Origin: Antedon mediterranea
Taxonomy: Eukaryota; Echinodermata; Crinoidea; Comatulida; Antedonidae
Direction: 5' to 3'
Length of the DNA: 64,000 nt
Assembly (NCBI RefSeq): GCF_964355755.1
Contig: NC_092672.1
Location: 1,612,001-1,676,000, forward strand
Part shown: in pieces, positions 1 through 5,600 of the stretch
Layout: each line of letters starts with the position of its first letter
How positions within the stretch are numbered: position 1 is the stretch's first letter
Notes under the pieces: model-generated
Told to the model about the DNA's origin: nothing
The model's input: the letters and a program-made list of their open reading frames with translations, nothing else
Databases searched by the model: none
Program-made: the position numbers and the translations under genes

Positions 1-2444
1 GTAAGTTATAATATATCAGACTACCTAGACAAGGAGGTAAGCATGCAAGTTATAATATATCAGACTACCTAGACAAGGAGGTAATAAGCATGTAAGTTAT
101 AATATATCAGACTACCTAGACAAGGAGGTAAGCATGCAAGTTATAATATATCAGACTACCTAGACAAGGAGGTAATAAGCATGCAAGTTATAATATATCA
201 GACTACCTAGACAAGGAGGTAAGCATGCAAGTTATAATATATCAGACTACCTAGACAAGGAGGTAAGCATGCAAGTTATAATATATCAGACTACCTAGAC
301 AAGGAGGTAAGCATGCAAGTTATAATATATCAGACTACCTAGACAAGGAGGTAAACATGCAAGTTATAATATATCAGACTACCTAGACAAGGAGGTAAGC
401 ATGCAAGTTATAATATATCAGACTACCTGGACAAGGAGATAAGCATGCAAGTTATAATATATCAGACTACCTAGACAAGGAGGTAAGCATGCAAGTTATA
501 ATATATCAGACTACCTAGACAAGGAGGTAAGCATGCAAGTTATAATATATCAGACTACCTAGACAAGGAGGTAAGCATGTAAGTTATAATATATCAGACT
601 ACCTAGACAAGGAGGTAAGCATGTAAGTTATAATATATCAGACTACCTAGACAAGGAGGTAAACATGCAAGTTATAATATATCAGACTACCTGGACAAGT
701 AGGTAAGCATGCAAGTTATAATATATCAGACTACCTAGACAAGGAGGTAAGCATGCAAGTTATAATATATCAGACTACCTAGACAAGGAGGTAAGCATGC
801 AAGTTATAATATATCAGACTACCTAGACAAGGAGGTAAGCATGCAAGTTATAATATATCAGACTACCTAGACAAGGAGGTAAGCATGCAAGTTATAATAT
901 ATCAGACTACCTGGACAAGGAGGTAAGCATGCAAGTTATAATATATCAGACTACCTAGACAAGGAGGTAATAAGCATGTAAGTTATAATATATCAGACTA
1001 CCTAGACAAGGAGGTAATAAGCATGCAAGTTATAATATATCAGACTACCTAGACAAGGAGGTAAGCATGCAAGTTATAATATATCAGACTACCTGGACAA
1101 GGAGGTAAGCATGCAAGTTATAATATATCAGACTACCTAGACAAGGAGGTAAACATGCAAGTTATAATATATCAGACTACCTAGACAAGGAGGTAAACAT
1201 GCAAGTTATAATATATCAGACTACCTAGACAAGGAGGTAAGCATGCAAGTTATAATATATCAGACTACCTAGACAAGGAGGTAAGCATGCAAGTTATAAT
1301 ATATCAGACTACCTGGACAAGTAGGTAAGCATGCAAGTTATAATATATCAGACTACCTAGACAAGGAGGTAAGCATGCAAGTTATAATATATCAGACTAC
1401 CTAGACAAGGAGGTAAGCATGCAAGTTATAATATATCAGACTACCTGGACAAGGAGGTAAGCATGCAAGTTATAATATATCAGACTACCTAGACAAGGAG
1501 GTAAGCATGCAAGTTATAATATATCAGACTACCTGGACAAGGAGGTAAGCATGCAAGTTATAATATATCAGACTACCTAGACAAGGAGGTAATAAGCATG
1601 TAAGTTATAATATATCAGACTACCTAGACAAGGAGGTAAGCATGCAAGTTATAATATATCAGACTACCTAGACAAGGAGGTAATAAGCATGTAAGTTATA
1701 ATATATCAGACTACCTAGACAAGGAGGTAAGCATGCAAGTTATAATATATCAGACTACCTAGACAAGGAGGTAATAAGCATGCAAGTTATAATATATCAG
1801 ACTACCTAGACAAGGAGGTAAGCATGCAAGTTATAATATATCAGACTACCTAGACAAGGAGGTAAGCATGCAAGTTATAATATATCAGACTACCTAGACA
1901 AGGAGGTAAGCATGCAAGTTATAATATATCAGACTACCTAGACAAGGAGGTAAACATGCAAGTTATAATATATCAGACTACCTAGACAAGGAGGTAAGCA
2001 TGCAAGTTATAATATATCAGACTACCTGGACAAGGAGATAAGCATGCAAGTTATAATATATCAGACTACCTAGACAAGGAGGTAAGCATGCAAGTTATAA
2101 TATATCAGACTACCTAGACAAGGAGGTAAGCATGCAAGTTATAATATATCAGACTACCTAGACAAGGAGGTAAGCATGCAAGTTATAATATATCAGACTA
2201 CCTAGACAAGGAGGTAAGCATGCAAGTTATAATATATCAGACTACCTAGACAAGGAGGTAAACATGCAAGTTATAATATATCAGACTACCTAGACAAGAA
2301 GGTAAGCATGCAAGTTATAATATATCAGACTACCTAGACAAGGAGGTAAGCATGCAAGTTATAATATATCAGACTACCTAGACAAGGAGGTAATAAGCAT
2401 GCAAGTTATAATATATCAGACTACCTAGACAAGGAGGTAAGCAT
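1..2444 (+). repeat. 44/47 bp minisatellite in a HELLS intron
   Basis: About 55 head-to-tail units fill the window start. The common unit is 44 bp and a minority are 47 bp, where 'gtaagcat' becomes 'gtaataagcat'. Each unit contains 'gacaaggaggtaagcatg', that is an exon-like end followed by a strong splice-donor motif (gag|gtaagc). Point variants (ctagac/ctggac, gtaagc/gtaaac, gcatgc/gcatgt) recur in blocks, which indicates segmental amplification. The array stops about 155 bp before the first visible HELLS exon (2601), so it lies in the preceding intron and may extend left of the window. Read in one frame, the bases before the donor are open (ISDYLDKE), so the unit may copy the end of the upstream exon; that exon is outside the window. 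Confidence 0.95.
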
Positions 2445-2600
2445 GTTTTGTTTAAATGTGTTTATACTACTGTTTACTGCTACTTTTACCTTACGTCAAA
2501 TGTAGAATTACCCCAAAATAAGAAACCAGCCAATGATTTCTCAAATATACATATTGTGGATTTAAATGTATTGTTGTAATAAAATTGTTTTTCTCTCAAG

Positions 2601-5600
2601 AAACTGGCAGCAAAGAAACTGAAACCTGATCCATCTGTCTTGAAAGATGAAACACAAACAGAAGCAAATAAGGAAGAGATGAAGAAAAATGAGGAAAACA
2701 TTGATACTAAAGTAAGTCTGAATATAGATGCTGGATTTGATTCAATTTATATAAATGGAAATCATCTATTTGATTCTGTCATATTTAAATATATTGGTGT
2801 GGCTATAAGCCATCACAAATAAAGAATTTAAATAAATGGGCTGAAAATGTTGTTCCTTGGTCTTTAGTCACATGAGTCATTTGTGTTTTTTTATATGAAT
2901 AGTACATGTTAATGCAAACTAGTGGTTGATACAGTTGTTAATATTCTGTTAACTATATATCCTCAACGGAGAAACATTTTATAATTTAGAAAACTCCATC
3001 ATTTGAATACACCAATTTCATAAACCGGTTGTTTTTACCCCTATTGAGGGTAGGGAAAAAATTGGTTGCATGATTTTTATGTTTCAGGACTACAAAGACA
3101 CATTTAAAAGAAGAATAAATGGTCAGAAAGTGTCGGACAGACAACCAAAGCTGTTTACAGGTGGTGTTATGAGAACTTATCAACTGGACGGTTTGGAATG
3201 GCTAAAGGTAAGACAAAAATAATAAATAAATATGTACAGTTAGTGACAGACGACAAGGGCCACTGAATCTCACTGGGCTAAACTGGAAGGATTACCCTCT
3301 TTAAACATGGTTGAAATAAAACAAATTGTAAAACTGTTGCACGGCGGTATTCAGCATGTGGCAGACAAGGTGCTCACCTAGTTCATCAGTAAATACTGCA
3401 ATTGATTAAAAAAACATCAGAAACATCATTTTTTATTTTAGATTTTGTATGAGAATGGTGTCAACGGTATCCTTGGTGATGAGATGGGGTTGGGCAAGAC
3501 CATCCAGTGCATCGCCCTCTTTAGTCACATGTTGGAGATGGGTGTTCCAGGTCCTTATATGGTATGTGCCCCTCTGTCAACCCTGCCAAATTGGGTCTCT
3601 GAGTTTTCAAGGTTTGCACCAAAGGTAAGATTAACTGTTATACTCCTCCATATAACTTTTTGTTTCCATACTCCTCCCAGGTCCCTGTTAACTTTCTGTT
3701 TCCATACTCCTCCCAGGTCCCTGTTAACTTTCTGATTCCATACTCCTCCCAGGTCCCTTTTAACTTTCTGATTCCATACTCCTCCCAGGTCCCTGTTAAC
3801 TTTCTGTTTCCATACTCCTCCCAGGTCCCTGTTAACTTTCTGATTCCATACTCCTCCCAGGTCCCTTTTAACTTTCTGATTCCATACTCCTCCCAGGTCC
3901 CTGTTAACTTTCTAATTCCATACTCCTCCCAGGTCCCTGTTAACTTTCTGATTCCATACTCCTCCCAGGTCCCTGTTAACTTTCTAATTCCATACTCCTC
4001 CCAGGTCCCTTTTAACTTTCTGATTCCATACTCCTCCCAGGTCCCTGTTAACTTTCTGATTCCATACTCCTCCCAGGTCCCTGTTAACTTTCTGATTCCA
4101 TACTCCTCCCAGGTCCCTGTTAACTTTCTGATTCCATACTCCTCCCAGGTCCCTTTTAACTTTCTGATTCCATACTCCTCCCAGGTCCCTGTTAACTTTC
4201 TAATTCCATACTCCTCCCAGGTCCCTGTTAACTTTCTGATTCCATACTCCTCCCAGGTCCCTGTTAACTTTCTGATTCCATACTCCTCCCAGGTCCCTTT
4301 TAACTTTCTGATTCCATACTCCTCCCAGGTCCCTGTTAACTTTCTGATTCCATACTCCTGCCAGGTCCCTGTTAACTTTCTGATTCCATACTCCTCCCAG
4401 GTCCCTGTTAACTTTCTGATTCCATACTCCTCCCAGGTCCCTGTTAACTTTCTGATTCCATACTCCTCCCAGGTCCCTTTTAACTTTCTGATTCCATACT
4501 CCTCCCAGGTCCCTGTTAACTTTCTAATTCCATACTCCTCCCAGGTCCCTGTTAACTTTCTGATTCCATACTCCTCCCAGGTCCCTGTTAACTTTCTGAT
4601 TCCATACTCCTCCCAGGTCCCTTTTAACTGTTTGTTTCCATACTTCTCCCAGGTCCCTGTTAACTTTTTGTTTCCATACTCCTCTCAGGTCCCTGTTAAC
4701 TTTTTTGTTTCCATACCACTTCCAGGTCTCTGTTAACTGTTTGTTTCCATACTTCTCCCAGGTCCCTGTTAACTTTTTGTTTCCATACTCCTCCCAGGTC
4801 CTGTTAACTTTTTGTTTCCATACTCCTCTCAGGTCCCTGTTAACTTTTTTGTTTCCATACCACTTCCAGGTCTCTGTTAACTGTTTGTTTCCATACTTCT
4901 CCCAGGTCTCTGTTAACTGTTTGTTTCCATACTTCTCCCAGGTCCCTGTTAACTTTTTGTTTCCATACTTCTCCCAGGTCCCTGTTAACTTTTTGTTTCC
5001 ATACTCCTCCCAGGTCCCTGTTAACTTTTTGTTTCCATACTCCTCCAAGGTCCCTGTTGTTATACAGTAACTTTGGTATATTCCTCCCAGGTCCCTGTTA
5101 TTCTATACCACGGATCAATACAGGAGCGTGAGCAGAAGCGCCATTATATTCGTAAACACAAGAATGAGTTTGGTACACAGCCGGTCGTGATTACGTCATT
5201 TGAGATTGCAATGCGGGATTCCAAGTACCTGAACCATTACCTCTGGAAGTATATAATAGTAGACGAAGGTCACAGAATCAAGAACATGAACTGTCGTTTG
5301 ATCAAGTGAGTTCTTTGAAAATGTGCAGATATATTTGTTTAAGTGAAGGTGGGCTGGGTCAACTTTATTCCCCTCTAAAATTTACTTTAAGTCTTTCTAC
5401 CCAGCTACAATATCACCCACTGCAATCAAATTTGCTTTTGAGTGGCATATGTAAAGAAGTATTTGTGTTGAGTGAAGTTAAGCCGAACCTAAACTGATTC
5501 TACCCAGCTTATATTTCACATACCAACTTAAGTTGTCTTACCTACCACTTTTACTGTTTAGAACACACCATCATGTTATAGAAATATCCTAACATGTTTA

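What the first reader, a model, noticed from the sequence alone, without database searches (positions are those of the whole stretch)
1..5099. HELLS minisatellites repeat splice sites
The 36 bp array (3637-5085) repeats the acceptor and first bases of the exon at 5091 (cctcccag|gtccctgtta) about 40 times. The three units before 8058 do the same for another exon. The array at 1-2444 repeats a donor-like gag|gtaagc about 55 times. Several independent arrays in one gene, built on exon/intron boundaries, suggest that splice-site sequence seeds tandem duplication here, or that decoys are tolerated or used. The HELLS frame stays intact, so splicing must choose the last acceptor among ~40.
Basis: seen in the sequence. 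Interest (0 to 1): 0.75.

Follow-up and report, generated by a model that had tools for sequence, protein, structure and literature searches.

The report
Minisatellites copying splice junctions (mirages)
In a gene of what looks like an echinoderm, three junk-DNA repeat arrays are made of copies of the gene's own exon edges, up to 94 in one array; such "mirage" arrays were described before in amphioxus, and here they look like ordinary repeats that happened to start on a junction and are spliced around.

Summary
HELLS (Lsh) carries three tandem arrays, and each repeats a true exon/intron boundary. (A) 44 bp x 94: end of exon 5 plus its donor. It starts 1.7 kb upstream of the window, and the true donor is the first copy. 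(B) 36 bp x ~39: acceptor of intron 8 plus 10 nt of exon 9. (C) ~58 bp x ~4: acceptor of intron 14 plus ~40 nt of exon 15. Decoy use would meet a stop in 132 of 133 cases, so splicing should use the exon-proximal copy; no RNA data were available to confirm this.

This is the phenomenon named "mirages" in amphioxus. The genome here is most likely an echinoderm (bindin, tektin-4). In three gene families sampled blind to repeats, 4 of 42 arrays sit on a junction (a CHD1L-like gene, a CHD7/8-like gene, two in one dynein gene). Chance predicts 2.4 to 4.7, so I find no evidence that splice sites seed duplication, although only a large excess could have been seen. Best reading: ordinary tandem duplications that happen to span junctions expand by unequal exchange and are tolerated because the exon-proximal site keeps being used. 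New member of a known kind.

The parts
1..2444 (+). Array A, in-window part: 44-bp units = last 34 nt of HELLS exon 5 + first 10 nt of intron 5 (donor GAG|GTAAGC). 94 units in all, starting upstream at about -1720 (L001:7280)
2601..2711 (+). HELLS exon 6 (follows intron 5, about 4287 nt with array A)
3442..3624 (+). HELLS exon 8 (...SRFAPK|), helicase motif DEMGLGKT
3637..5085 (+). Array B: 36-bp units = 26 nt of intron 8 end (tract + cag) + first 10 nt of exon 9; 39 decoy acceptors
5091..5305 (+). HELLS exon 9 (VPVILYHG...); the true acceptor of array B is the last copy
7880..8057 (+). Array C: ~50-58-bp units = acceptor of intron 14 + ~40 nt of exon 15; 3 decoys then the true acceptor
8058..8177 (+). 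HELLS exon 15 ([18 protein letters not shown]...)
36901..48568 (+). Tandem segmental duplicate of about 5440-19400 (pieces 76-95% identical): a 5'-truncated HELLS copy and flanking DNA
38908..39408 (+). Array C in the truncated copy: about 8 units of 58 bp instead of about 4

Best explanation
These are 'mirages': minisatellites born when a short tandem duplication (here 36-112 bp) happened to span an exon/intron boundary, so that every later copy carries the splice signal plus a stub of exon. Shown: the anatomy of all three HELLS arrays, the same in three other genes, and internal array expansion (array A contains one run of 36 consecutive units twice). Shown for one case: a birth, since a truncated HELLS copy has about seven 99-bp units on the intron-13 acceptor where the two other copies have one. 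Inferred: the spliceosome uses the exon-proximal copy in each array (first donor, last acceptor), because decoy use would nearly always bring in a stop; it does so by pairing sites across the exon; and the arrays are neutral passengers placed without regard to splice sites.
For: Each HELLS array unit contains a real junction. Same anatomy elsewhere: L011 CHD1L-like donor, 87 bp x 28, and L014 CHD7/8-like donor, 112 bp x 2.4; L048 dynein heavy chain, acceptor 77 bp x 2.8 and donor 50 bp x 10. Unit types of array A: 36 consecutive units recur exactly in order, from unit 16 and from unit 52, a mark of unequal exchange. GT is lost in 2 of 94 units and the exact true donor 9-mer is kept in 66 of 94; in the 82 units of 44 bp, G of GT is changed in 2 and T in none, while 13 of 44 positions vary, so there is no sign of selection for or against decoys. 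Decoy outcome: A 90 of 91 units with GT meet a stop, B 39 of 39, C 3 of 3. Junction counts match random placement (4 of 42, expected 2.4-4.7). Shared short bases at the joints, read by eye (TA for B, TCA for CHD1L-like, AAAAT beside one changed base for the dynein donor), and CCCTAA filler in the dynein acceptor unit point to ordinary end-joining repair.
Against: No transcript data, so which copy is used is inferred from frame only. Collapsing the arrays leaves short introns (roughly 100-700 nt, my arithmetic; the 57 placed dynein introns, arrays included, have median 262 nt). In short introns the nearest pair across the intron tends to be preferred (PMC9225289 abstract), which predicts decoy use when the array was young. 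Three of three arrays in HELLS is more than the general rate predicts. In array A the first decoy (42 nt on) keeps the frame open, so an in-frame isoform with 14 extra residues is possible. The observed birth lies in a 5'-truncated copy that may be a pseudogene.
Confidence: 0.8

Rival explanations
1. Splice-site sequence (AG|GT with its tract) is itself a hot spot for tandem duplication, so minisatellites preferentially start on junctions.
For: 3 of 3 HELLS arrays by reading (2 by script, 0.51 expected, P = 0.07); a fourth HELLS junction gained one in a truncated copy; two of four arrays in one dynein gene.
Against: Outside HELLS 4 of 42 arrays on junctions against 2.4 expected at least, P = 0.20; 13 myosin-locus arrays had 0 (0.14 expected). 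Arrays off junctions are as large (for example L010 56 bp x 16, L029 31 bp x 49).
Confidence: 0.12
2. Decoys are functional: the arrays are recursive-splicing ladders or sources of regulated, poisoned isoforms that tune HELLS level.
For: Array B repeats AG|GT, the shape of a recursive site, 40 times with the true one; decoy isoforms carry stops and would be decayed.
Against: CAG|GTCCCT is a poor donor (score -0.97 against 6.94 for GAG|GTAAGC, weights from recalled consensus). Array A units have no pyrimidine tract before the AG (read). No excess conservation of GT over other unit positions. Copy number differs freely between duplicates.
Confidence: 0.05
3. Intron gain or birth by tandem duplication of an exonic AGGT segment (Rogers model).
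For: Units hold AG|GT and an exon stub; the same idea was proposed for amphioxus globins (PMC3087553), and a related case is potato RdRp (PMC4974935).
Against: Intron 8 begins GTAAGATTAAC, not with the exon-9 start GTCCCTG that the model requires; intron 5 ends in an acceptor unrelated to its donor unit. So both introns most likely existed before the arrays.
Confidence: 0.03
4. Assembly artefact: copy number inflated or arrays wrongly joined.
For: A 36-unit run occurs twice in array A, which a mis-joined assembly could also give; no reads were available.
Against: Arrays carry internal variants, diverged end units and consistent flanks; the same kind occurs at unrelated loci.
Confidence: 0.05

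Closest known systems
'Mirages' of amphioxus (Adh3, globins BflGb6 and BflGb9, PGBD5, troponin C; passages of PMC3087553 and PMC3902484)
   Same: Minisatellite-like tandem units spanning either the 5' or the 3' boundary of an exon; splice signals copied; reported not to disturb splicing; unit lengths (10-72 bp in Adh3, 150-160 bp in globins) bracket those here (36-112 bp).
   Different: Probably an echinoderm, not a cephalochordate; up to 94 units (3 and 6 in the two BflGb6 haplotypes); a rate per junction is estimated here; splicing and length polymorphism not tested here.
Variable internal tandem repeats at exon-intron boundaries of human genes in segmental duplications (passages of PMC2812944)
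   Same: Minisatellite expansion at exon-intron boundaries of duplicated genes.
   Different: There the repeats can change transcripts and make novel introns; here the introns most likely pre-exist and the coding frame of full-length HELLS is unchanged.
[quoted passage not shown] passages of PMC4974935)
   Same: Tandem duplication that crosses or copies a splice boundary.
   Different: No new intron is made here; an existing intron grows.

Membership tests
Amphioxus-type 'mirage' minisatellites | Tandem array inside a gene whose unit spans a real exon/intron boundary | tested here: met
   HELLS; other genes
Amphioxus-type 'mirage' minisatellites | Copied units keep splice signals | tested here: met
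   Donor GT kept in 92 of 94 units of A; 40 AG|GTC sites in B with the true one; 4 acceptors in C
Amphioxus-type 'mirage' minisatellites | Normal mRNA splicing in spite of decoys | not testable with these tools
   No transcript data; frame argument only
Amphioxus-type 'mirage' minisatellites | Length instability between haplotypes or in somatic cells | tested here: inconclusive
   Copy number differs between HELLS duplicates (array C: 3.8, 7.8 and 6.9 copies), but no second haplotype was available
Amphioxus-type 'mirage' minisatellites | Found in cephalochordates (not a defining trait of the structure) | tested here: not met
   Bindin PF02084 match, 107 bits; tektin-4 exon best to 8snb, 294 bits against 157 for the next chain. 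That bindin is echinoderm-specific and that 8snb is sea-urchin sperm are recalled
Intron gain by tandem duplication (Rogers) | Both intron ends derive from copies of the same exonic AGGT segment | tested here: not met
   Intron 8 starts GTAAGATTAAC; exon 9 starts GTCCCTG
Recursive splice sites | Zero-length exon: acceptor directly followed by a strong donor | tested here: not met
   Array B has AG|GTCCCT, score -0.97 against 6.94 for the exon-5 donor; array A has no tract before AG (read)

The most novel reading that the evidence does not exclude
In this genome junction-spanning minisatellites form a standing intron-lengthening ratchet: about 2% of junctions (4 of 213 annotated outside HELLS) carry one, and they turn short introns (intron 8 about 100 nt, intron 5 about 200 nt without the array) into kilobase introns full of perfect decoys. 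They are natural tests of whether sites are paired across the intron or the exon, and the switch in pairing mode is what lets an array survive and grow.
Probability: 0.2. Interest if true: 0.6.

Novelty: new member of a known kind. Interest (0 to 1): 0.42.

Why it matters
In the papers I saw, mirages are described from amphioxus. Finding them in what appears to be an echinoderm, in HELLS and three other genes, and at about the rate expected for randomly placed minisatellites, suggests that animals can tolerate large ladders of perfect decoy splice sites. Arrays of near-identical sites that differ only in position are natural competition assays for exon against intron definition and can be read with ordinary RNA-seq. 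I saw no report of such arrays outside cephalochordates under the name mirage in searches, which cover open-licence PMC papers only.

Tried and rejected
Amphioxus as source was my first guess (18 contigs, mirages known there). I dropped it after the bindin and tektin results. The GFP search found nothing but had no positive control, so it counts for nothing. COX1 gave no match, so the mitochondrial code could not be used. The tektin-3-like exon in L003 had mammalian Tektin-3 chains as best hits and does not help the echinoderm case. A paper search for an 18-chromosome echinoderm gave one paper, on hagfish.

Splice-site seeding was tested and not supported. alone missed the L011 junction because no Pfam row covers that exon; I added its two junctions by eye, which favours the seeding idea slightly. 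Arrays near a junction but not covering it were counted as misses: L015 (ends about 14 bp before the acceptor), L025 (starts about 10 bp after the donor), L016 (three), L012, L008 (two), L042, L049 and others.

Rows dropped. SNF2: of 69 Pfam rows, 60 lay in the 20 fetched regions; 5 are in the window and 4 were not fetched. L027 (2 rows, a HELLS copy) was left out of the statistics, leaving 19 loci. Myosin: 26 of 80 rows fell in the 9 fetched regions; L036 had no placed junction and dropped out (8 loci counted). Dynein: 82 of 89 rows in 17 regions; L054 had no placed intron and dropped out (16 loci counted). Arrays with period under 20, TRF score under 80, or belonging to a dispersed 21-bp family were left out before counting. 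The six tektin loci and the kinesin search were not used for the count. Splice sites in the sample were placed by script with consensus weights that I recalled, not by transcripts.

Mended on rechecking: one search listed 37 sites in array B because its pattern missed three; one search gives 39 decoys, each followed by a stop. One search also counted two units of array A that have lost GT; one search counts 91 with GT, 90 followed by a stop.

In-frame unit lengths: 3 of 8 mirage unit lengths are multiples of 3 (36, 87, 99 against 44, 50, 58, 77, 112), so there is no frame preference.

Failed or empty calls: no Pfam hit for a 40-aa piece; script error, rerun; search term too short, reworded as 57; terms not in the paper; report sections in the wrong form. 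One search was a badly chosen pattern with no match; I used it only for the genome's size and position.
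Full report
Setting. The window is C3:1612001-1676000 of a 354-Mb genome in 18 contigs. I read 9 kb upstream as L001. The gene runs from L001 through about window 10760. A 262-residue piece matches Lymphoid-specific helicase best in the PDB (375 bits; DDM1 287; next SNF2 protein 223), so it is HELLS (Lsh). Exons 2 to 15 read open with GT...AG borders (a few borders there are one or two bases off and were set by reading).

Anatomy. Array A begins inside exon 5, whose true end is ...SYNISHYLDKE|gtaagc at L001:7313. It continues into the window to 2444: 94 units, 81 of 93 spacings exactly 44. 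The unit is the last 34 nt of exon 5 plus 10 nt of intron. Array B (3637-5085) is 26 nt of intron 8 end plus the first 10 nt of exon 9, with 39 decoy AG|GTC sites before the real one at 5091. Array C holds three decoys and the true acceptor of exon 15. The 'donor-like' one is a true donor whose original lies outside the window.

Frame. If a decoy were used, a stop follows in 90 of 91 cases for A (two further units have lost GT), 39 of 39 for B and 3 of 3 for C. The exception is the first decoy of A, 42 nt on, which stays open through exon 6. Hence the working splice site should be the first donor and the last acceptors, always the copy next to the full exon. This is inference; there are no transcripts here.

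Dynamics. In array A, 36 consecutive units of mixed types recur in the same order, as after unequal exchange. The two splice letters are neither specially kept nor specially lost. The window also holds a 5'-truncated HELLS duplicate (36901 onward), and a third truncated copy lies on the other strand at C3:3.11 Mb (L027, L037). Array C has 3.8, 7.8 and 6.9 copies in the three. The third copy has, in addition, about seven 99-bp units made of the intron-13 acceptor and the start of exon 14, which is single in copies 1 and 2. That is a junction array that arose after the copies parted. Copies 2 and 3 lack the 5' half, and exon 11 of copy 3 appears frame-broken, so this case shows birth, not tolerance.

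Other genes. I sampled loci by Pfam rows, blind to repeats: SNF2 helicases (19 loci without HELLS copies, 110 kb), myosins (9 loci, 87 kb; 8 counted) and dynein heavy chains (17 loci, 57 introns placed in 16). Reading showed junction arrays in a CHD1L-like gene (donor, 87 bp x 28), a CHD7/8-like gene (donor, 112 bp x 2.4, with 16 nt of the exon stub lost), and twice in one dynein gene (acceptor 77 bp x 2.8; donor 50 bp x 10). Gene names other than HELLS are my recognition of motifs or the Pfam family, not a match to a named protein.

Enrichment. Counting arrays of period 20 or more, TRF score 80 or more, without a dispersed 21-bp family, 4 of 42 cover an annotated junction. Random placement gives 2.4 (P = 0.20), or 3.5 and 4.7 if real junctions are 1.5 or 2 times those annotated (P = 0.49, 0.75). 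By junction it is 4 of 213 (95% interval 0.5-4.7%). HELLS itself, 3 of 3 by reading (2 by script, P = 0.07) with 0.51 expected, is above that but was chosen for being odd. I conclude that junctions neither clearly attract nor repel minisatellites in this sample. The power is low: only a large excess would have shown.

Mechanism. Joint sequences show two to five shared bases in array B, the CHD1L-like donor and the dynein donor (read by eye; the joints of array A, array C and the CHD7/8-like array were not settled). The dynein acceptor unit contains CCCTAACCCTAA filler, a 12-mer found in no other fetched locus and not in the window. Both are what end-joining repair leaves; this is an inference. 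On choice of site, one study (PMC9225289; I saw the abstract and outline) reports that in short introns the sites nearest across the intron pair, and in long introns those nearest across the exon. The grown arrays make introns of 1466 and about 4287 nt, so pairing across the exon fits. But the same introns without arrays would be only some 100-200 nt, so young arrays should have favoured decoys. That tension is the most interesting open point, and RNA reads would settle it.

Species. A bindin match of 107 bits and a tektin-4 exon far closer to 8snb (294 bits) than to the next chain, a Tektin-4 (157 bits), point to an echinoderm. That bindin is confined to echinoderms and that 8snb is sea urchin are recalled. 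I could not name the species.

Known work. The amphioxus papers describe this structure as mirages: PMC3087553 (passages, part of the abstract among them) and PMC3902484 (passages); the original Adh paper is known to me only through these. Human repeats at exon-intron boundaries are in PMC2812944 (passages), and a boundary-crossing tandem duplication in potato is in PMC4974935 (passages). My literature searches did not show mirages reported outside cephalochordates, but they cover open-licence papers only.

Verdict. It belongs to a known kind, and the seeding idea is not supported by the sample.

Noticed in passing
window 55854-61896: A 29-bp unit repeated about 208 times at 99% match (6 kb), TACTAGATGGTAAGTAGTCGAGTGGTAAG, with very strong GC skew.
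   Followed up: no
window 36654-36913 and C3:3106000-3121000 (L027, L037): Two 5'-truncated HELLS copies share a left border where DNA around exon 16 (about 9665-9930) is followed by intron 9 (about 5440), as if from an earlier tandem duplication of part of the gene.
   Followed up: partly
L010, L014, L015, L018-L020, L022, L023, L025, L026, L029, L031, L032, L039-L041, L044, L050: A dispersed 21-bp tandem unit close to GTGATATGCCCAAATATGGTA shows up on both strands in 18 of the 45 SNF2, myosin and dynein loci without HELLS copies, mostly 2-5 copies; perhaps a mobile or satellite-like family.
   Followed up: no
G000 C3:19.6-25.2 Mb: 19 listed matches to one stretch of the myosin head (query about 342-408) with similar scores spread over 5.5 Mb, 18 on one strand: an expanded myosin family (a lower bound).
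   Followed up: no
L033:6517-6648 and 6688-6822: Two neighbouring segments match the same myosin-head positions (107-152), 39 nt apart: perhaps a duplicated or alternative exon.
   Followed up: no
L048:486-700: The dynein acceptor array units contain CCCTAACCCTAA, the telomere motif, at the joint between exon stub and intron part.
   Followed up: partly
window 12180-12708 and 42288-42634: 177-bp units with about 3 and 2 copies in the two duplicates; by eye they read on the minus strand like leucine-rich repeats, perhaps of an immune-receptor gene.
   Followed up: no
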